From a virus: 53,252 nucleotides of DNA. The stretch's first letter is position 1; every line of letters begins with the position of its first letter. A program made the translations under genes and the position numbers. The notes below the pieces were generated by a model. That model worked only from the letters and a program-made list of their open reading frames with translations. It did not search any database and was not told where the DNA came from. Location: IMG/VR virus record IMGVR_UViG_3300013132_000065, positions 1 through 53,252 of that record; one strand, given 5' to 3'. Positions 1,482 through 18,901 of the stretch are shown here, piece after piece.

Positions 1482-1540
1482 GGTGTTAGCCTCGTCCAGC
1501 CTTCCGGCAGCCAGACTCAGCGAGCCGCTAACGCAGCCAT
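1471..1540 (+). other. GC-rich structured non-coding element
   Basis: Downstream of the holin-like gene, a locally GC-rich stretch can fold: GTTAGCCTCG at 1485-1494 pairs with CGAG (1521-1524) plus GCTAAC (1527-1532) with a two-base bulge, and the loop contains a smaller GCC-TTCC-GGC hairpin. An alternative hairpin GAGG-tgttag-CCTC (1480-1493) competes with it. There is no following T-run, so it is not a classic terminator. It may be a structured RNA, an attenuator or an RNA-processing site. Confidence 0.4.
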
Positions 1541-1626
1541 CCCTATTTAATGTTAACATAATCTATATGCTAGCCGTAACGGTGCGCATGCGCCATATAT
1601 ATGTCTATACTAAAACAAGGAACACA

Positions 1627-2781
1627 ATGAGACATTTCATGATTTTTGCCCTGCTATTCATGGCAGCGTGCCGCCCAGAACCCGTTACACCAGAACCAGA
1701 TCCACGTGGCACTAACGTGCAAGTTATAGGTGATATCACAACAAACAGTGTTTGGCAAGCGCATAACACATATGAATTAGTAGGCAGAGTTATAGTGCAA
1801 GCCGGTGCAACATTAACTATAGAACCGGGTACCATCATTAAGGGTGCGCCAGGTACAGGTGCCGCGGCATCAGCATTGATTGTAGCACAAGGTGCACGTA
1901 TACATGCAGTCGGTACCGCGGAGCTTCCTATCATATTTACTTCTACGGCAGATGATATTACACCGGAAGATGTGCAAGCCGGCGTATATGTTAGTCCGAA
2001 CTTGTCTAATACCATTACGGGCTTATGGGGAGGAGTGATAATATTAGGCAATGCACCTATATCAGCATCAACCGATATAACACAAATAGAAGGAATTCCA
2101 ACATCCGAAATAGCAGGTAGATATGGAGGTACCGATGCAATGGATTCATCCGGCATACTGCAGTATGTATCTATTAGGCATGGTGGAACAAATATTGGAT
2201 CCGGCAATGAAATTAACGGCTTAACGCTAGGAGGCGTTGGATCAGGTACTGTTATAGATAACATTGAAATTATAGCCAATCAAGATGATGGAATTGAATT
2301 GTTTGGAGGTAGCGTAACGGTTACCAATATAAGCATATGGAATGTAGGCGATGATGCCATAGATACAGATCAGGGATGGAGTGGTGAACTACGCAATTTC
2401 ATAGTGATATCACCCAATGGTCATGCGTTAGAATTGGACGGCCCAGAAGGGTTAGGCGAAGCAATGCATACCATATCGCAAGGATTAGTGATTGCCAATT
2501 GGAACGGCATGCTATCGCAAGATCTAGTAAATATGGATGACAATAGCAGAGTATCATTGCATGATATAACATTTACGCATGTAACAAGCAACAATAAGAT
2601 TAATCGAGTAACGGCTAATGCAGGAAGCATTGTATTTGAAAATATAGCAATAGATTGCACTGATTTAAATGCGCATGTAGCAAGCACATGGATACCGAAA
2701 GGTATAATGATAGGTAATGCAATGCATGTAAATGTAATGCCATGGTGGCAATGCGCAATGCTAGCATGCATACCGCAATAA
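1627..2781 (+). CDS. Beta-helix surface lipoprotein (Bacteroidota type)
   Basis: 384 aa starting at MRHFMIF, with AAGGA 5-9 bases upstream. The N-terminus is a lipoprotein signal with lipobox MAAC (Cys15), followed by a Pro/Glu-rich linker. The body contains ATLTIEPGTIIKG and many G-x-I/V-x-I rungs (for example TVIDNIEIIANQDDGIELFGG, about residues 215-235), as in the right-handed beta-helix lipoproteins common in Bacteroidota. It is likely exported and anchored in the outer membrane of infected cells, or remade as a virion surface part; its role is unknown. A surface-changing or superinfection-blocking role is conjecture. The last ~20 residues (WWQCAMLACIPQ) look atypical for the family. Confidence 0.75.
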   Translation: MRHFMIFALLFMAACRPEPVTPEPDPRGTNVQVIGDITTNSVWQAHNTYELVGRVIVQAGATLTIEPGTIIKGAPGTGAAASALIVAQGARIHAVGTAELPIIFTSTADDITPEDVQAGVYVSPNLSNTITGLWGGVIILGNAPISASTDITQIEGIPTSEIAGRYGGTDAMDSSGILQYVSIRHGGTNIGSGNEINGLTLGGVGSGTVIDNIEIIANQDDGIELFGGSVTVTNISIWNVGDDAIDTDQGWSGELRNFIVISPNGHALELDGPEGLGEAMHTISQGLVIANWNGMLSQDLVNMDDNSRVSLHDITFTHVTSNNKINRVTANAGSIVFENIAIDCTDLNAHVASTWIPKGIMIGNAMHVNVMPWWQCAMLACIPQ

Positions 2782-5449: not shown

Positions 5450-6202
5450 TTAACGCTGAGGCTGATATGCACCACCTAGGCCTCGCGAGGCTAATGCATC
5501 AGCTATCATGATAGCTTCACGACTTTGTGATCGTAGGGAGCGTGTACCGGGGCTAAGCCATGGCGAATCCACATGTATTTGGGTAACTGGCAAAGTTTGG
5601 TCTAGTATCCATGTTTCCTTTTCCTGATACCCGCCCGCCGCAGTTAAAAAATCCGGATTCATAAAAGCCAATGCTTTGACTTGCTTATAAGGAATAGTGA
5701 CAACAATGGCCCATCTGCCAGCTGGTAATCTACCCTGTGCAAAGTTCGCTGCTACCAACCAATCTAGCGATACTGATACAAAACCCGGGCTACGAGATTT
5801 AATGTGTTGTGATACGGGGCCTAATCGAAACCAATTGCCGGCGCTGACTTCCGTGATCTGGATCGCGGGATCTTGTATTAATTCCGCGCATTGTTCCACA
5901 GCTAAAGTCATGCCTCTATATACCCGATCGCTGTCAGCTAATCCCGGATCTAACACAGCTGGGAACTTTTGTTTTAAGGGCAATAATTGCTCGATAGCTG
6001 AGATATCAATCTGATCTTTTTCGCCATTCGTAAGGTAAGTATATAACTGCCACCAAAGCGCCTCTTCTTCCTCGGTATTCCTTTCCTTCATGCCGTCATA
6101 CACTTGCGCGATAAATCGATTATAACGGATGTGACGTTGGGGATTAGCCCATAAGAGATCGCCGTATTGGAATTCTCGTAATAATGTTTTCAATCGTATC
6201 AT
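5450..6202 (-). CDS. ADP-ribosyltransferase paralogue 1 (R-S-ExE)
   Basis: Only clear minus-strand gene in the window. Numbered from an in-frame ATG at 6208, R-S-E class ART motifs are YRG with Arg98, the SVS strand (145-147) and E196-K-E198 before TWIL. It would move ADP-ribose from NAD to a protein, with ExE typical of arginine-specific enzymes. The N-terminus MIRLKTLLREFQYGDLLWA is shared with the other paralogues and contains a possible L-x-E cleavage site. KFPAVLDP before the YRG motif is also shared. The start at 6202 is chosen because MIRL is conserved. T4 Alt is a known packaged phage ART. Target unknown. Confidence 0.85.
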   Translation of the reverse strand: MIRLKTLLREFQYGDLLWANPQRHIRYNRFIAQVYDGMKERNTEEEEALWWQLYTYLTNGEKDQIDISAIEQLLPLKQKFPAVLDPGLADSDRVYRGMTLAVEQCAELIQDPAIQITEVSAGNWFRLGPVSQHIKSRSPGFVSVSLDWLVAANFAQGRLPAGRWAIVVTIPYKQVKALAFMNPDFLTAAGGYQEKETWILDQTLPVTQIHVDSPWLSPGTRSLRSQSREAIMIADALASRGLGGAYQPQR

Positions 6203-6206
6203 ATAC

Positions 6207-6215
6207 ATAAATATA
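6207..6215 (-). promoter_or_regulatory. Candidate late promoter TATATTTAT (minus strand)
   Basis: On the minus strand TATATTTAT ends only 4 bases before the ART start at 6202. The sequence around it (TATATTTATGTATATGATACG) is almost the same as that before the ART gene at 9290. With transcription starting about 6 bases downstream, the mRNA would be essentially leaderless. Confidence 0.5.
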
Positions 6216-6334: not shown

Positions 6335-6673
6335 ATGAATATAACTAGGAATCATTCAATGATCAATCAAAAAAATGGTAAGGATAAAATGTCACGGCCA
6401 TCGCGATCAAATCGAGCCGGACTAACTGAATCAGCTTTACGTGCTATAATCTGTGAAGAGTTGCGCCGTGTGATCGCGGAAAGACGGGTATATCGGTCCG
6501 CGGAATACGAAGAAATGCATAGCGCGATTGAAACGATTCTAGATAATCTACGCTTCCTCGAACCGCCTCATATAGTGCCCGCCCGCGATGCACGCGAAGC
6601 AGTCCGCGATGTGCAAAAGGCCTTGCAAGCATTGTCTGAATTGATCGATCGGTACGGCACTGAAGATAGATGA
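6335..6673 (+). CDS. Leader-motif small helical protein
   Basis: 112 aa, highly charged and helical, no catalytic motif. Contains LRAIICEELRRVI at about 35-47, one of eight copies in this window of an (I/L)-I-x-E-E-(L/I) motif. An internal ATG at 6389 has AAGGAT just upstream; starting there would place the motif at residues 17-25, as in the other tagged proteins, so 6389 may be the true start. The stop overlaps the ART start (ATGA). It could be a packaged internal protein or a partner of the ART. Confidence 0.65.
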   Translation: MNITRNHSMINQKNGKDKMSRPSRSNRAGLTESALRAIICEELRRVIAERRVYRSAEYEEMHSAIETILDNLRFLEPPHIVPARDAREAVRDVQKALQALSELIDRYGTEDR

Positions 6674-7488
6674 TTCGATTACGTGACTTGCTCCTTGAGT
6701 TAGATTACGGTGACAAGCTATTTGCGGATGATTTGATCGACCCGAAACACCCTCGCGAAAAGGCTTGGGGACGATTTATCCAGCAAATATATCGACCGGA
6801 TTTTGAGCCCAACACTGGCGCGGAGCAGGAACTACTCGACCAATTGCAAGCATATATCGGCGTGGGCCACCGCAATGCGAAGCTTGCGAGTGCATTGCAG
6901 CAATTGCTACCACTGCGATCGCGATTCCCTCGTATATTAGATCCAACCGCGGCCAGCATCACGAGTGACGACGAAACGCCCATGCCATGGGCTGAGCCTT
7001 ATCCGGATCTTGCATGGCGCGGCACCTGGGCGCCGATGCCATGGGCAGCTAAGGTAATGGCTCAAAGCAAACATGTTCACAACGTAACCGTGTCCGATGA
7101 ATATTCGCTTCGTCATGTCATGTTTCGAGATGGGAGGGAAGTCGAGGCTACGGTTTTCGAGCGCCCGGGCGTGATTTATAAGTCATCAGGTGAGCGTATG
7201 ATTTCTTTTTCCGATCGGCCCGATGTCGCATTTAGATTCATGCGTGCACGCGCTAAGGATATATATAATCCAAGCAAACCGTCTGGCGTGCCAGTCGCGC
7301 TTGGCATTGCAAAAACGCACCCACGTTTAATCATGAATCCGGATGCTATGAATGCGTTAGGTAGCGATTTTGCGGGAGGTGAATCTGAAATGCTGTTGCT
7401 GACTAATGCGTTTACCCCGGATGTTGTTGTGTTTATAGATCCATATGGGCTTAAATACATAGATAACTATATAGATAACATCCAGTGA
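6670..7488 (+). CDS. ADP-ribosyltransferase paralogue 2 (R-S-ExE)
   Basis: 272 aa, ATGA overlap with the gene before it. The N-terminus MIRLRDLLLELDYGDKLFAD is the shared paralogue leader. RFPRILDP (86-92) precedes the catalytic region. ART motifs: WRG with Arg117 (Trp replaces the usual Tyr), SFS at 179-181, and E238-S-E240. An insertion between the Arg and STS motifs makes it longer than its siblings. The last part, VVVFIDP, matches the shared V-x-x-L-x-I-x-DP ending. GC content is visibly higher than in the neighbouring ARTs, so it may have a different history. Confidence 0.83.
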   Translation: MIRLRDLLLELDYGDKLFADDLIDPKHPREKAWGRFIQQIYRPDFEPNTGAEQELLDQLQAYIGVGHRNAKLASALQQLLPLRSRFPRILDPTAASITSDDETPMPWAEPYPDLAWRGTWAPMPWAAKVMAQSKHVHNVTVSDEYSLRHVMFRDGREVEATVFERPGVIYKSSGERMISFSDRPDVAFRFMRARAKDIYNPSKPSGVPVALGIAKTHPRLIMNPDAMNALGSDFAGGESEMLLLTNAFTPDVVVFIDPYGLKYIDNYIDNIQ

Positions 7489-8408: not shown

Positions 8409-9242
8409 ATGAGTGTGATACGATTGCGAAAATTATTACAAGAATTTGAAGTTGGAAATTTACTATGGGCTGACTCATCAGATACTAGGCGTTCAGGGTA
8501 TTTTCAGAAATTTCTTAATACAGTTTATGGTGATGAGATAGAGCCTAATACTCCGGAGGAAGCGGCTGCATTAGAACGAATAGAATCTTTTATATTAAAT
8601 AATGATATTAAGACGCCTTCCGGTGTCCGTACATTAAATGAGCCGAAAAAATTTATAAAAGATTTATTAAAACTCAAGCCAAAATTTCCGGCAATGCTTG
8701 ACCCATTATATAATAATCCGAAGTTGAGTAACGATGCTTACATATATCGCGGAATGACAACTGAGTTATCTATAATAATTCACACTATTCAGTATGCTAA
8801 ATCGTTCGAAAGGATTCGGGCACAAAACGATAACCATTATATAAGTGTTAAACATCCCAAAGTAAGTATAAAATCACGTGCAAAAGGATTTATGAGTTTC
8901 ACCACAGGCTCTCAGAAGCTCTCCGGACTCGCCGTAGCTGATATATTCACAGGGCAAAACTTATGGTCAGCGTCCGGTGCAGGCCGTTGGGGAGTTATTA
9001 TTGGAATACGGTATGGAGATATTGCAGATAAGGCATTATTAAATCCGGAGTTTGTTGAAGCTATTGGCGGTTGGGGCGAATCTGAAATATGGTTATTAGA
9101 AGGAAAAATTGTACCTGATGTATTGTATATACGAGATCCATTCATATGGTATGGCACCGACAGTCGCGCGACTGTACCTAATGAAATAAAAAATGCCTTG
9201 AAGGCAAATCCTAACTTTCAACATATGACAGATGTAGTGTAA
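8409..9242 (+). CDS. ADP-ribosyltransferase paralogue 3 (R-S-ExE)
   Basis: 277 aa. Shared leader VIRLRKLLQEFEVGNLLWAD (3-22), then EPNTPEE (45-51) and KFPAMLDP (92-99), both found in sibling ARTs. Catalytic motifs: YRG with Arg114, SFT at 163-165, and E224-S-E226 before IWLL. AGRWGVIIGI lies between the second and third motifs as in paralogue 1. The ATG at 8409 is used; the equivalent of the sibling MIRL start would be the GTG at 8415. NAD-dependent protein ADP-ribosylation is expected; target unknown. Confidence 0.85.
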   Translation: MSVIRLRKLLQEFEVGNLLWADSSDTRRSGYFQKFLNTVYGDEIEPNTPEEAAALERIESFILNNDIKTPSGVRTLNEPKKFIKDLLKLKPKFPAMLDPLYNNPKLSNDAYIYRGMTTELSIIIHTIQYAKSFERIRAQNDNHYISVKHPKVSIKSRAKGFMSFTTGSQKLSGLAVADIFTGQNLWSASGAGRWGVIIGIRYGDIADKALLNPEFVEAIGGWGESEIWLLEGKIVPDVLYIRDPFIWYGTDSRATVPNEIKNALKANPNFQHMTDVV

Positions 9243-9289: not shown

Positions 9290-10066
9290 ATGATACGACT
9301 ACGTCAATTATTACAAGAATTTGAAGTTGGAAAGCATCTATGGGCTGATGAAGATATATATAAATCGGCTCGTTCAAAACAAGCAAAATTCCTTCAAGCA
9401 CTATACCATGGTGCATGGGAACCTAATACTCCGGAAGAGCTAGCGGCCTGGCGTGAGATATATTACTACGTAATGACGAGTAAAAAGAGCCCGAACTTTA
9501 TAAAGATCTTAGACGATCTACTCGCTCTTAAGTCAAAATTTCCTAAAATACTTGATCCAGAATTATCACCGAAAACTAAGCTTTATCGTGGAATGACTTT
9601 AGACGCGGAGCGTATAGTTGAGTTGTTATATGCTAGCAATTCAGTAACTAAAGCGACGGGCTGGCAAAATTTTGATGACGTTCTCGGAGGCACTGTTATA
9701 CGAATTGCGATTGATCGCCGCTTCATCAGGTCACGTAGCGCGAAATTTTTATCAATGTCTACTGAATATACAGTTGCTAAAAATTTTGCCAGGTGGCCTA
9801 TGACACGTGCCGGTATGATGGACGGTTCTAGATGGCCTCTTATTGCGGAAATAAATTATAGTGATATCGAGGCCTTAGCTTTAATGAATCCAAAATTCAT
9901 GAATACTTTTTCTGTGTTAGACGAAGAGGAAATTTGGGTAGTTGCTGACGCGGTACCTATTACAGCTTTATATATAACTGATCCTAGATCAATTGATGCT
10001 CCCACGGAATACAATGAGGCTCAGCGGATGATCGCGAATGCATTAAATCGCAAAAATCCGCATTAA
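9290..10066 (+). CDS. ADP-ribosyltransferase paralogue 4 (R-S-ExE)
   Basis: 258 aa. Leader MIRLRQLLQEFEVGKHLWAD with candidate L-Q-E cleavage site at residues 8-10. EPNTPEE (44-50) and KFPKILDP (83-90) are shared with siblings. Catalytic motifs: YRG with Arg100, SMS at 155-157, and E212-E213-E214 before IWVV. It is the closest sibling of paralogue 3 in its first 20 residues. T4 Alt shows that phages can package an ART and inject it with the DNA; the leader here suggests the same, as an inference. Target unknown. Confidence 0.86.
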   Translation: MIRLRQLLQEFEVGKHLWADEDIYKSARSKQAKFLQALYHGAWEPNTPEELAAWREIYYYVMTSKKSPNFIKILDDLLALKSKFPKILDPELSPKTKLYRGMTLDAERIVELLYASNSVTKATGWQNFDDVLGGTVIRIAIDRRFIRSRSAKFLSMSTEYTVAKNFARWPMTRAGMMDGSRWPLIAEINYSDIEALALMNPKFMNTFSVLDEEEIWVVADAVPITALYITDPRSIDAPTEYNEAQRMIANALNRKNPH

Positions 10067-10475: not shown

Positions 10476-10783
10476 AAGTTATATATAGTATAGTTGCATG
10501 TATATGCTTATTAGTTAGTTGCACATCATCATCACATATGCAATGTGATGAAGTATATTCATATGATTATAATTGCCCAGAACGCGATTATTATAATTTT
10601 AATGTATACCGCGCGTATTATCCAAATACCGAGACAGTATACTTTGTGCCCTATTATGTGCCAAACACACACGAGCCGAAATGTAATGATCATGCAACGC
10701 CTAGTAGGGAAATTATAACGGGGCGCCGGCCATCTTTATCATCTCACCGTACTAATAAACGCCCTGAGACAAATGAACAATGA
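10472..10783 (+). CDS. Small Tyr-rich lipoprotein
   Basis: 103 aa with a lipoprotein signal: short basic start, hydrophobic core, lipobox LVSC with Cys17. The mature part is rich in Tyr, Asn and Pro (YDYNCPERDYYNFNVYRAYY) and ends in a basic tail. Translationally coupled on both sides by ATGA overlaps, between a tagged protein and an ART. It could be an outer-membrane factor made late in infection, for example one that blocks superinfection; this is only inferred from location and signal. Confidence 0.7.
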   Translation: MKVIYSIVACICLLVSCTSSSHMQCDEVYSYDYNCPERDYYNFNVYRAYYPNTETVYFVPYYVPNTHEPKCNDHATPSREIITGRRPSLSSHRTNKRPETNEQ

Positions 10784-11532
10784 GGCTATTACATTTATTG
10801 CATGAGTTTGAATATGGTGAAAATTTATTTGCCGATCCTAGTCATTATAGCAATGTACAGACTACATCTGACTTAAATATCATTGGCTATCGTAACTATG
10901 CAGATATAGAAACTGATACTGAGGATGAGACGCGCGCGTTAGAATTACTCGATGTATTTTATTCTGGTGATTTTGTCAACTTAGATGAAACCGCATTGTA
11001 TAAACTCATCGCACCACTAAAAAAACTTAAATCAAAATTTCCAAAAATATTAGACCCACGTACTAGTCCCGGTATTGGGCAAATGGTGTACCGCGGTGCA
11101 ACTATATCTTTAGATTTAGTTAAAGATATGCCGTATACGGTCGCTGGCAGCAATATTATACTTGAAGTGCCTAAAAATTTTAAAGTACGGCCGCAATCTG
11201 GACGGCCTATACACTCTTTTAGTATTAAACGGTATATGGCAGTTAATTATGCATTAAATCAAACATTAATGTCAGTAGAAAATCCAAGCCGTGTACCAGC
11301 TATAATTTGCGTAGATGTAAATGATCCTAATTTATTATTTTCAACTCGTTTTTCAGAGCTACATAGTATATATAGAGAAGAAGAAGAAGTATTTTATGCT
11401 AACTATGATATTACAGTAAACGAGTTAATTCTAAAGTCAGCAATTATAGAAGATATATATAAAGAACATGCTAATAGCAGTAATCATGTTGTACGCAGTG
11501 TATATACTAAATGGTATAATGCTATCAATTAA
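10780..11532 (+). CDS. ADP-ribosyltransferase paralogue 5 (R-S-ExE)
   Basis: 250 aa. Leader MRLLHLLHEFEYGENLFADP, with L-H-E at 7-9. KSKFPKILDP (84-93) is shared with siblings. Catalytic motifs: YRG with Arg105, SFS at 146-148, and a run of four Glu (200-203) supplying E201-x-E203 before VFY. The region between the STS and ExE motifs lacks the RW-x-V-I strand seen in paralogues 1, 3 and 4, so this copy has diverged. It starts with an ATGA overlap on the lipoprotein gene. Confidence 0.82.
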   Translation: MRLLHLLHEFEYGENLFADPSHYSNVQTTSDLNIIGYRNYADIETDTEDETRALELLDVFYSGDFVNLDETALYKLIAPLKKLKSKFPKILDPRTSPGIGQMVYRGATISLDLVKDMPYTVAGSNIILEVPKNFKVRPQSGRPIHSFSIKRYMAVNYALNQTLMSVENPSRVPAIICVDVNDPNLLFSTRFSELHSIYREEEEVFYANYDITVNELILKSAIIEDIYKEHANSSNHVVRSVYTKWYNAIN

Positions 11533-15632: not shown

Positions 15633-16361
15633 ATGGGTATAATGAATGTCAAGTTTATGCAGTATACAATATTAGTGTTGACTTATTTACTGTTGTTATC
15701 GTGTGATAAACAGGCATATGTACATGATAATACGATCGATCATAGTGTTGAATTAATTCAGGCTTATGAACCTAACTTACCTGAAAGCGTTATACAACAA
15801 GCAAGGGGTAGTCGGCTAAAATCAAATTTTTTATCAGTAACGCCGGATACCGTCTATACATCAAATGATTTACTAGATTTTTTATCGGTATATGGCACTA
15901 TAGTACCGGACATAACACCTGAATTCGTTAATTATTACCAGGATATTGGCTCTGGCCATACTAACGCTAAGTTAGATAACTTAACAATGCCAGAAGATGA
16001 AAATAGAATTTATGAGTGGTTCATTAATAATATACTGGTATACACAGGGTATAACTTGCCGTTAGTTGCAACTGCTAATTTGCTTGAATGTGAAGGTGTT
16101 ATGATGATCAAACTTAAAGTAACGGATCCTGTGACATTGGCTGAGTATGAACGAGAACAATGGTCTTATATAGAATACCTTTTTATTCCGGACAGCGTGG
16201 CATGCGACTGTACTGATTGTCCGTTATATTGGGATGTAATTCCAATACCGCCCACCCCGGGGCCGTATGATTATCAGACAAAACATGCTAAATGGGACTT
16301 AAATTATGATAATGTCATTAATGTTAATGACTTACTTATATTGTTAGCCTATTATAGTTAA
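15633..16361 (+). CDS. Lipoprotein with C-terminal dockerin-like loop
   Basis: 242 aa. Lipoprotein signal with hydrophobic core and lipobox LLSC (Cys24). The middle region is not recognised; it contains a CDCTDC cluster around 190-196. The C-terminus WDLNYDNVINVNDLLILLAYY is a calcium-loop/dockerin-like half, close to those ending the next two genes. The three neighbouring genes therefore look like a set of cell-surface or secreted proteins. A Bacteroidota-type export route is inferred. Whether it acts on the host envelope or on competitors is unknown. Confidence 0.72.
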   Translation: MGIMNVKFMQYTILVLTYLLLLSCDKQAYVHDNTIDHSVELIQAYEPNLPESVIQQARGSRLKSNFLSVTPDTVYTSNDLLDFLSVYGTIVPDITPEFVNYYQDIGSGHTNAKLDNLTMPEDENRIYEWFINNILVYTGYNLPLVATANLLECEGVMMIKLKVTDPVTLAEYEREQWSYIEYLFIPDSVACDCTDCPLYWDVIPIPPTPGPYDYQTKHAKWDLNYDNVINVNDLLILLAYYS

Positions 16362-16372
16362 CTAGGAGTGAA

Positions 16373-17506
16373 ATGAAAAAAGTATTACTGTTACTATTGC
16401 TAAATATGTTTGCATTTTTTTTGGTAGCACAAGAAGAATGTGGCACTACTACATCTAAAATTGAGTATAATAAAGCTAGCCGACATGCTAAAAGTATGGC
16501 CATGGCTAGATCATCTGGTACTGTACAACTTAAAGAAATTCCTATTGTTTTTCATATTTTTTATTCTGAGTCAATAGCCAATTCGTATGTTCCTCGCGAG
16601 GCCGTGGTTGAGGCATTTTATGACATAAATAGAAATTTTATAGGAACAAAATTTAGATTTCGGTTAGTTGATATTAAATATCAAAACTTAGCTGAATTTG
16701 CGTGGCATAATGATTTCTTAAACGGTAGTACTAATTTACCTAATAAAAATCATGGCAGAATGCATGATTTAGCTAATAGTACTTATTTAGACCCCAATTC
16801 TCACTTAAATATTTATATTTGCCCAAAATTTAGTACAGCCGGGCTTAAAGGGTTTTCATTTACTACTCCATATGCCCCAGTTGTAGGGCAAGGATTAAAA
16901 CCTGCTGACGGCGTTTGGATTAGAACTGATGTATTTGGCGTTAATCTTCCATATTTAGCTCAGTACAATACATTAAACAAAATAGTCGTTCATGAGATAG
17001 GCCATTATTTGGGACTATTTCATACATTTCAAGGCAGTGCCGGGTGTGATCCAGATGTCTTACCTTTAGATTGTGCAACTACAGGCGATCTAGTATGTGA
17101 CACGCCTCCTATAAAATCTTCGGTTATAGCAAATCACTGCAATCCTAGATGTCCTGACAATTGGACGCCTGGGATGCCATGGGAATCTTATACCTATGAT
17201 AACTTTATGGATTATTTAGCCGATAATTGTAGATATAGTTTTACTGCTGGCCAGATTGATCGAATGCACCAGCATGTTATACAACAACGTCCCGATGTTT
17301 ATCAAACTATAACTGTACAACAGCAAGTTGATTTAGATAGGAACTATAGTATAGGTTCATCCGATATGTTATTATTGTTATCTTGTATAAATCAACCTAT
17401 AGAATCTAAAGATTGCTATTTATGTGACTTTGATTTTAATAAAGTAGTAGGCGTATCCGACCTTCAACTTTTACTTTCCTTTATGGGAACTACTTACCCA
17501 AAGTAA
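16373..17506 (+). CDS. Secreted M43-family zinc metalloprotease
   Basis: 377 aa. Signal peptide with cleavage after LVAQ (about 20), typical of Bacteroidota. Zinc motif HEIGHYLGLFH (207-217) and Met-turn NFMDYL (278-282) are those of cytophagalysin/pappalysin-like (M43) peptidases. The Cys pairs around CDPDVLPLDC and VCDTPP are also typical. The C-terminal part carries two dockerin-like calcium loops (DLDRNYSIGSSDMLLLL and DFDFNKVVGVSDLQLLL). Unlike the next gene it lacks an obvious T9SS sorting domain. A secreted protease in a phage is unusual; it may process surface proteins. Confidence 0.85.
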   Translation: MKKVLLLLLLNMFAFFLVAQEECGTTTSKIEYNKASRHAKSMAMARSSGTVQLKEIPIVFHIFYSESIANSYVPREAVVEAFYDINRNFIGTKFRFRLVDIKYQNLAEFAWHNDFLNGSTNLPNKNHGRMHDLANSTYLDPNSHLNIYICPKFSTAGLKGFSFTTPYAPVVGQGLKPADGVWIRTDVFGVNLPYLAQYNTLNKIVVHEIGHYLGLFHTFQGSAGCDPDVLPLDCATTGDLVCDTPPIKSSVIANHCNPRCPDNWTPGMPWESYTYDNFMDYLADNCRYSFTAGQIDRMHQHVIQQRPDVYQTITVQQQVDLDRNYSIGSSDMLLLLSCINQPIESKDCYLCDFDFNKVVGVSDLQLLLSFMGTTYPK

Positions 17507-17509
17507 TCT

Positions 17510-17517
17510 ATATTTAT
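17510..17517 (+). promoter_or_regulatory. Candidate late promoter ATATTTAT
   Basis: In TATATTTATA just after the previous stop, 25 bases before the ATG of the second metalloprotease. Confidence 0.48.
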
Positions 17518-17542
17518 ACATAGATTTACAAACTTTAATCAC

Positions 17543-18901
17543 ATGAAACAGTTTATCATTATACTAGGATTTTTATCCTTTACGTTAAGTTCCGTAGCAC
17601 AAGAACCTATGAGTTGTGCTATGTTAGGTGATACAAAAAATGTATTGCCAATGGGATTCTTAAAAAACAAAAGTAATCGTAGTAATACTGCCAAAACGAT
17701 TCCGGTAGTAGTTCATATAGTTTATACTGATGCTATAGAAAATACATATGTCCCTGTTGAGGCTATCCAACCTGCTATAGATCAATTAAATGTTGACTTC
17801 GAAGGAACTAATATATTATTTGAACTAGTAGGTTATGATTATACAGATTTATCTACCTATGTTTGGCATGATGCATATGTAAGTGGGCAGGTATGTTTTC
17901 CTACATACCAAAACCAAGCTACCATGTTAGCTAATGACGTGGCATGGGACATTTCAGAATATTGTAACATATACGTTATACCTAAAATGTGCTCTACAAT
18001 ATTAGGCTATGCATATGTAGGATATGGGCCAAATAATGCTGATGACGGTGTTTGGGTACTCACTAAAACTTTTGGTATTGGCGAATGGCCCCACCTGAAT
18101 CCCGCATATAACGAAAATGAAACCTTAACTCATGAGTTAGGACACTACTGCGGTTTATTTCATACATTCAATTTAAACCCAGGCACATGCGGTGCACAAG
18201 ACCCAGATATCCCTTGTGAATACGAAGGAGATTATGTTTGTGATACTCCTCCTACTAAACCTAGTGCTGGTTGTCCCGGTACTACTGGTTATCACTGTCC
18301 TATAACCAATTATGATGGCGGTGTTTGGTTTAATGCTCGTAATCATATGGATTATGGGGGCCAATATTGCAGAGATGAATTCACACCGGGCCAAATAGAT
18401 AGAATGCATGCTATGCTTGAATATCAAAGATATGAATTGTATAGCGATGATTCCGTAATACCATTCTGTCCCGGAGATTTTAATGGCGATGGGAACATAG
18501 GTACGGCTGATTTATTAGTAATATTATCAAACTACGGTTGTATAGGATGTGGTCCTTCACAAGGGGATGCTACTTTAGACTATGTAGTAGGTGTAGCTGA
18601 TATTAATTGGGTACTAGCCAATTGGGGTGAAATTTGCGGTGATGGTATAGGAATGATAGAAGGGGAAAATATTTATTTACCTCAACTACCATACGTTCCT
18701 CAAAAGCCGAAACAATCAATTCCGTTTAAGACGTTAGCAGCGTTACTAGTTCAAGAACCTAAGCCAATTCTAGAAATAAACTATTATGATATCATTGGGC
18801 GAAATATTAATCTGTCAGAATTAGTACAAACACGTGGCATATATGTCGTTGAAATTATTTTTGAAGATGGTTCACGGGCTGTGTTAAAAACGTATAACTA
18901 A
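17543..18901 (+). CDS. Secreted M43 metalloprotease with T9SS sorting domain
   Basis: 452 aa. Signal peptide ending SSVAQ (20). Catalytic motif HELGHYCGLFH (197-207), Met-turn NHMDYG (267-272). Dockerin-like loops DFNGDGNIGTADLLVIL (312-328) and DATLDYVVGVADINWVL (342-358). The last ~45 residues, with EINYYDIIGRNINLSEL, RGIYVVEI and an ending KTYN, match a type A T9SS C-terminal sorting domain (consensus: Y-D-x-x-G-R, then G-x-Y, then a basic K-x end). It would be exported and cell-anchored by the type IX system found only in Bacteroidota. Paralogue of the previous gene. Substrate unknown. Confidence 0.88.
   Translation: MKQFIIILGFLSFTLSSVAQEPMSCAMLGDTKNVLPMGFLKNKSNRSNTAKTIPVVVHIVYTDAIENTYVPVEAIQPAIDQLNVDFEGTNILFELVGYDYTDLSTYVWHDAYVSGQVCFPTYQNQATMLANDVAWDISEYCNIYVIPKMCSTILGYAYVGYGPNNADDGVWVLTKTFGIGEWPHLNPAYNENETLTHELGHYCGLFHTFNLNPGTCGAQDPDIPCEYEGDYVCDTPPTKPSAGCPGTTGYHCPITNYDGGVWFNARNHMDYGGQYCRDEFTPGQIDRMHAMLEYQRYELYSDDSVIPFCPGDFNGDGNIGTADLLVILSNYGCIGCGPSQGDATLDYVVGVADINWVLANWGEICGDGIGMIEGENIYLPQLPYVPQKPKQSIPFKTLAALLVQEPKPILEINYYDIIGRNINLSELVQTRGIYVVEIIFEDGSRAVLKTYN

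What the first reader, a model, noticed from the sequence alone, without database searches (positions are those of the whole stretch)
15633..18901. Phage-encoded secreted proteases with T9SS sorting signal and dockerin-like loops
Three adjacent genes encode a lipoprotein and two M43 metalloproteases, all ending in dockerin-like calcium loops, and the last also has a type A T9SS sorting domain. A lytic-type phage that exports proteases through a host-specific secretion route would be uncommon. They may cleave surface proteins to aid release or spread, block superinfection or inactivate competitors.
Basis: partly seen in the sequence, partly recalled or inferred. Interest (0 to 1): 0.78.

Follow-up and report, generated by a model that had tools for sequence, protein, structure and literature searches.

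The report
Phage-only exported M43 protease module
A phage of Bacteroidota bacteria carries a lipoprotein and two exported protein-cutting enzymes from a family branch seen here only in phages, often encoded beside the gene that opens the host cell, which suggests such phages use proteases to breach or strip the cell envelope.

Summary
The three genes are real, at the stated coordinates, and phage-borne: the same trio occurs in three other viral contigs, so a chimera is excluded. Both proteases are M43 (pappalysin) enzymes with intact zinc site, Met-turn and cysteine-switch cysteine (40 of 40 aligned relatives). All three proteins end in EF-hand/dockerin-like loops. The "T9SS type A domain" of the last gene reaches no curated profile; its tail of about 40 residues does resemble the "short CTD" of Prevotella intermedia. 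In 51 of 81 loci a holin lies within 2.5 kb on the same strand. Only 3 of 79 carry the T9SS-like tail. Best reading: exported, latent envelope proteases of the late/lysis programme, with M43b possibly routed over the outer membrane. Function is inferred; the window itself has no holin beside the module.

The parts
15633..16361 (+). Lipoprotein (242 aa): lipobox Cys24, single C-terminal EF-hand loop
   Evidence: found in 5 other viral contigs, all of which also carry M43 genes
15687..15704 (+). Lipobox LLLLSC
16296..16331 (+). EF-hand/dockerin-like loop of the lipoprotein (aa 222-233)
   Evidence: present in the 4 complete sequences, the window included (the fifth is cut off)
16373..17506 (+). 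M43a, exported pappalysin-family metalloprotease (377 aa) with EF-hand pair, no T9SS-like tail
   Evidence: PF05572 E 1.1e-12; dN/dS 0.08 against the G001 orthologue
16991..17023 (+). M43a zinc-binding motif HEIGHYLGLFH
17330..17461 (+). M43a EF-hand/dockerin-like pair (aa 320-331 and 352-363)
   Evidence: G003 orthologue reaches PF00404 over cut-off
17543..18901 (+). M43b, exported pappalysin-family metalloprotease (452 aa) with EF-hand pair and short-CTD-like tail
   Evidence: PF05572 E 1.3e-17; model closest to mirolysin and ulilysin
17606..17617 (+). M43b pro-segment stretch ending in invariant Cys25 (predicted cysteine switch)
   Evidence: Cys in 40 of 40; switch mechanism from PMC11674741 passages
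18131..18163 (+). M43b zinc-binding motif HELGHYCGLFH
18341..18355 (+). M43b Met-turn NHMDY with Tyr271 (tyrosine switch)
   Evidence: Met and Tyr in 40 of 40
18476..18601 (+). M43b EF-hand/dockerin-like pair (aa 312-323 and 342-353)
   Evidence: Asp 312, 323, 342, 353 in 40 of 40
18785..18898 (+). M43b C-terminal tail resembling a short T9SS CTD (motif B YDIIGR, D GIY, E Lys)
   Evidence: no TIGR04183 match

Best explanation
The locus is an exported proteolytic module of a Bacteroidota phage. Shown: a lipoprotein and two M43 lower-pappalysin proteases with complete catalytic motifs, the proteases under purifying selection, the set kept together (adjacent or rearranged) in related phages. Inferred: Sec carries them out of the cytoplasm; the proteases stay latent by a cysteine switch and need calcium (EF-hand pair) to fold or act; the lipoprotein sits in a membrane; M43b may go on through the host's T9SS by a short CTD. 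Inferred from the phage-only clade, most of whose examined members lie close behind a holin: they are late proteins that cut envelope or surface proteins of the infected cell around lysis and release, in addition to, not instead of, the endolysin.
For: Catalytic residues and switch Cys 40 of 40. Phage-only clade 100/99; best bacterial identity mostly 27-38% (up to 42% over shorter stretches) against 43-100% to the nearest viral row within that clade. Signal-peptide-like N-terminus 73 of 78 (the other 5 miss the threshold narrowly) against 21 of 532 other ORFs. Holin (PHROG 3427, 24 of 24 members, best 2e-22) within 2.5 kb on the same strand in 51 of 81 loci, M15 endolysin in 11, either in 55, the order M15-holin-M43 in 7; 12 of 18 70%-identity clusters have at least one such member. 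An M15 endolysin lies 1.3 kb behind M43b in G002, a close relative of the window. The slot after the holin holds another exported protein with a T9SS CTD over cut-off in other phages. dN/dS 0.08-0.15 for the two proteases. Trio in window, G001, G003, G005.
Against: No holin or endolysin within 2.5 kb in the window; its Amidase_2 endolysin is 14 kb away. 26 of 81 loci lack the link (some are fragments cut just before M43); in G035 and G039 the holin is present but about 14 kb from M43. Starting from the holin, only 17 of the 80 best loci have M43 behind it. Loci are redundant, so counts are not independent. 13 of 35 M43 contigs also carry an M15 endolysin, so M43 is not the endolysin. Tail and lipoprotein models are low confidence. 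There are no expression, secretion or activity data.
Confidence: 0.5

Rival explanations
1. Surface shaving against superinfection or re-adsorption: the proteases are exported during infection and remove receptors or surface proteins from the infected cell and its debris, without a role in lysis itself.
For: Export signals; the T9SS-like tail of M43b and the type B CTD protein in G003 would place products on the cell surface; superinfection exclusion was also proposed for Cryophage cargo (PMC7468147 passage).
Against: Does not by itself explain the tight holin-M43 gene order; most members lack a T9SS-like tail (3 of 79 have it).
Confidence: 0.25
2. Exported accessory cargo (moron): a secreted digestive or competition protein carried in a convenient late-operon slot and acting outside the infected cell.
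For: The post-holin slot is variable: M43 in some phages, 707-835 aa Cys-rich T9SS cargo in others; bacterial M43 relatives are mostly T9SS cargo (25 of 39 closed ORFs with a YPNP-type tail).
Against: A deep phage-only clade with recurrent pairing and strong purifying selection is more than a passing cargo gene.
Confidence: 0.2
3. Virion- or baseplate-associated protease used at entry.
For: In many loci a very long late-region protein precedes the holin and M43; one such family matches a virion structural PHROG.
Against: Signal-peptide-like starts in nearly all members and no structural PHROG for M43 itself.
Confidence: 0.05

Closest known systems
Lower pappalysins (peptidase family M43): mirolysin of Tannerella forsythia, ulilysin of Methanosarcina acetivorans
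   Same: Same family; best solved relatives by profile (E 6.6e-26) and by model (E 3.4e-13); pro-segment Cys, Met-turn, Tyr switch
   Different: Phage-borne, own clade, EF-hand/dockerin-like pair behind the catalytic domain
Phage-encoded T9SS cargo: Cryophage (PMC7468147) and crAss-like BACON ORFs (PMC6949934)
   Same: Phage proteins with signals for the host's T9SS
   Different: Those are an endoglucanase, a GH39, a PA14 protein and BACON proteins annotated with T9SS sorting domains; here proteases with a short tail under every curated cut-off
Short T9SS CTDs of Prevotella intermedia (PMC11969387)
   Same: Tail of about 40-45 residues (paper: 43-55) with motif B (Tyr, Gly, basic residue), motif D GxY and a basic motif E, in that order
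   Different: The stretch between motif B and motif D is longer here (11 residues between YDIIGR and GIY; the paper gives 1-6); the paper reports short CTDs only in P. intermedia; no experiment here
Phage lysis cassettes (holin, endolysin, spanin)
   Same: In relatives the gene lies directly behind a holin, sometimes in the order endolysin-holin-M43
   Different: An M43 protease in this slot was not found in print by searches; in the window the module is not in a lysis cassette

Membership tests
Peptidase family M43 / lower pappalysin | HExxHxxGxxH zinc motif, Met-turn, profile match | tested here: met
   PF05572 over cut-off for both window proteins; residues 40 of 40
Peptidase family M43 / lower pappalysin | Pro-segment cysteine of the cysteine switch | tested here: met
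   Cys25 in 40 of 40; its role is taken from PMC11674741; latency itself not assayed
Peptidase family M43 / lower pappalysin | Proteolytic activity | not testable with these tools
   needs the purified protein
Dockerin type I | Profile match over cut-off | tested here: inconclusive
   No match for the window proteins; over cut-off for the relatives L013 M43a and L090
Dockerin type I | Binds a cohesin partner | not tested
   No cohesin search was made; the pair may be only a calcium-binding module
T9SS type A cargo (TIGR04183) | C-terminal sorting domain over the curated cut-off | tested here: not met
   No match in the window
Short-CTD T9SS cargo (P. intermedia type) | Tail of about 40-55 residues with motifs B, D, E | tested here: inconclusive
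   Post hoc pattern fits; 3 of 20000 shuffles of the window tail fit; half-CTD profile 6.8 bits; B-D spacing longer than in the paper
Short-CTD T9SS cargo (P. intermedia type) | Secretion depends on the host's T9SS | not testable with these tools
   needs an experiment
Phage lysis-cassette protein | Encoded with holin or endolysin | tested here: inconclusive
   55 of 81 loci yes, the window no
Phage lysis-cassette protein | Needed for normal lysis | not testable with these tools
   needs a knock-out

The most novel reading that the evidence does not exclude
Bacteroidota phages have their own class of lysis/release factor: a Sec-exported, calcium-dependent, cysteine-switch-latent pappalysin coupled to the holin, which digests envelope proteins at lysis (doing by proteolysis what spanins do by membrane fusion). 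In the window's phage group it has been doubled and joined to a lipoprotein, and one copy carries a minimal T9SS signal of about 40 residues that lets it work on the outside too.
Probability: 0.25. Interest if true: 0.82.

Novelty: new variant of a known kind. Interest (0 to 1): 0.62.

Why it matters
How phages of the abundant T9SS-bearing Bacteroidota get through the outer membrane and its protein coat is, as far as I recall, poorly known. A widespread phage-only protease clade that often sits behind the holin gives a concrete, testable candidate. The short tail, if functional, would be a minimal T9SS signal outside Prevotella intermedia.

Tried and rejected
Chimera or bacterial contamination: rejected (independent viral contigs with the same genes; phage genes around; terminase and portal beside M43 in L038). 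M43 as the endolysin itself: rejected as a general reading, since 13 of 35 contigs also carry an M15 endolysin. Cultured relatives: tblastn in 50,697 phage records gave one weak, unannotated hit or none. PF13585 (type B CTD) in 0 of 49 M43 contigs; TIGR04183 in 0 of 37. The G003 229-aa protein's tail looked T9SS-like by eye but failed the test (393 of 1000 shuffles as good). The fourth M43 of G003 (702 aa) has the best tail, but it nests among Flavobacteriales, so it is a separate acquisition. Structure of the lipoprotein: mean pLDDT 45, not used. phrog_2 was tried as a terminase marker and was evidently the wrong family (hits in 11 of 14 control genomes): uninformative. Promoter and terminator scan: nothing above shuffles. 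A full-CTD profile gave the window tail only 4.4 bits, with about 3 of 500 shuffles as good or better among the rows printed.

Rows dropped before counts: 3 viral rows under 250 aa from the tree; 9 of 30 CTD loci without a usable closed ORF; 4 M43 ORFs under 330 aa from the tail classes.

Full report
Observation. Gene 1 is a predicted lipoprotein; genes 2 (M43a) and 3 (M43b) are M43 peptidases over the Pfam cut-off. The AlphaFold model of M43b (mean pLDDT 68.7) is closest to mirolysin and ulilysin, and a profile of 40 phage relatives finds the same two enzymes first. Catalytic His/Glu, Met-turn Met, Tyr and the pro-segment Cys are present in 40 of 40 aligned proteins. In mirolysin and ulilysin that Cys blocks the zinc (cysteine switch; passages of PMC11674741; listing with starts of abstracts of PMC6949598 and PMC8259862). 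EF-hand loops at the C-ends are real: four ligand Asp are invariant in 40 of 40; PF00404 is reached by two relatives, not by the window proteins.

The T9SS tail. TIGR04183 and PF18962 do not match. Twenty-one CTDs from Bacteroidota genomes that match TIGR04183 served as a yardstick: the full profile gives the window tail 4.4 bits; a profile of the C-terminal half gives 6.8 bits, rank 6 of 1681 phage C-termini, with 4 of 1000 shuffles as good; the two orthologues score 8.3 and 8.2 bits, 0 of 1000 shuffles. PMC11969387 (passages) describes short CTDs of 43-55 residues in P. intermedia with motifs B, D and E, and cites that the last 22 residues of Hbp35 were the only part absolutely required for secretion of GFP. 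The window tail has Y-D-I-I-G-R, G-I-Y and a late Lys in that order. A pattern written afterwards fits 4 distinct phage proteins among 1681 C-termini (6 rows, two proteins listed twice), 5 of 33,620 shuffles, 3 of 20,000 shuffles of the window tail, and no short-like end among 1708 bacterial C-termini. Against: PMC11285876 (passages) gives 70-100 residues as the CTD in P. gingivalis and calls its folded architecture essential; the M43b relatives of G003, G004 and G005 lack the tail. The T9SS claim stays open, about even.

Relatives. Scans of IMG/VR with single proteins gave four contigs; with a 9-member profile, 255 confirmed loci, of which the best 80 were kept. In a tree of 50 viral and 51 bacterial domains, 49 viral rows, both window proteins among them, form one side of a 100/99 branch; only the 702-aa M43 of G003 nests among Flavobacteriales (the tool warns of long branches). 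The clade looks old in phages. Of 39 closed bacterial M43 ORFs, 25 have a YPNP-type tail; of 79 full-length phage proteins, 3 have a T9SS-like tail.

Neighbourhood. A protein of about 150 aa lies directly before M43 in many loci; all 24 aligned members match the holin family PHROG 3427, while Pfam's GTA_holin_3TM stays under its cut-off. By tblastn, 51 of 81 loci (80 viral and the window) have it within 2.5 kb on the same strand, 11 an M15 endolysin, 55 either, 7 the order M15-holin-M43. By cluster of 70% identity it is 12 of 18. Against: no link in 26 of 81 loci, the window among them; G035 and G039 have the holin about 14 kb away; and from the holin side only 17 of 80 loci have M43. In four other holin loci the largest ORF next to the holin is a 707-835 aa Cys-rich exported protein whose T9SS type A domain is over the curated cut-off. 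Over 47 contigs, 8 have such a domain, and in 6 of these 8 the ORF starts at 0 to about 2.6 kb behind the holin. The slot after the holin thus looks like a place for exported proteins.

The module in the window's group. The lipoprotein occurs in five other contigs, all with M43 genes. Lipoprotein, M43a and M43b occur together in the window, G001, G003 and G005; in G003 and G005 M43a lies on the strand opposite to the lipoprotein, so the set has survived rearrangement. G002 shows no M43a and has an M15 endolysin 1.3 kb behind M43b. dN/dS is 0.08 for M43a and 0.09-0.15 for M43b; in the tail dN is 0.15-0.28 with dS 0.5, 2.0 or saturated. For the lipoprotein, dS was saturated in two of three pairs.

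Mechanism. Shown: complete catalytic motifs, export-like starts, phage-only clade, frequent holin neighbour, selection. Inferred: latency in the periplasm, calcium need, action on envelope or surface proteins around lysis, T9SS passage of M43b. The amidase endolysin of the window lies at 626-1327 (PF01510 1.8e-10), so the proteases would act beside it.

Novelty. T9SS cargo in phages is in print (PMC7468147 passages; PMC6949934 passages). A search for papers holding phage, M43, holin and metalloprotease gave none; phage, holin, metalloprotease and lysis cassette gave ten whose titles point elsewhere (listing only); a wider search on M43 and phages gave no fitting title among the 15 listed of 1,030. 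Subscription journals are mostly absent from that library. I file it as a new variant of a known kind.

Noticed in passing
window 5450-6208 (-), 6670-7488, 8409-9242, 9290-10066, 10780-11532 (+): Array of paralogous ORFs sharing an N-terminal MIRLRxLLxEFxYGxxLwAD-like motif and an RG-containing stretch (by eye ADP-ribosyltransferase-like); no Pfam or PHROG match for those tested.
   Followed up: partly
window 1483-2781: A further exported-looking lipoprotein (lipobox after a later ATG), weakly like pectate lyase (PF03211 E 0.0011, below cut-off).
   Followed up: partly
L021 5040-7175 (G003, 152-kb relative): 712-aa phage protein with a T9SS type B (CHU_C) domain over the curated cut-offs.
   Followed up: partly
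L229 3923-6043, L240 4047-6464, L241 3929-6433, L268 3932-6070: Cys-rich GCTDPxAxNYN-repeat proteins with T9SS type A domains over cut-off, encoded right behind a phage holin.
   Followed up: partly
L064, L067, L072, L073, L074, L075, L085 (next gene after M43): GroEL (phrog_5725, 4.5e-125 for L073) and a GroES-like ORF follow M43 in this subgroup.
   Followed up: no
L070, L071, L093, L102, L103, L106, L107, L109: Small exported thioredoxin-like ORF (by eye; no Pfam match) directly before M43, in most with a one-TM ORF and the holin before it; it may serve disulphide formation in the Cys-rich protease.
   Followed up: no
L115 and L118 (Crocinitomicaceae/Bacteroidetes M43 genes): Bacterial M43 proteins that end in a dockerin-like EF-hand instead of a T9SS CTD, like the phage ones; the C-terminal EF-hand may itself be an anchoring or sorting module.
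   Followed up: no
M43 C-termini of the holin group (e.g. L036 2652-3905): Recurrent short C-terminal motif K/RPExxxE after the EF-hand pair in 31 of 79 proteins, and FYRE/RGRSPF in 28 of 79; function unknown.
   Followed up: no
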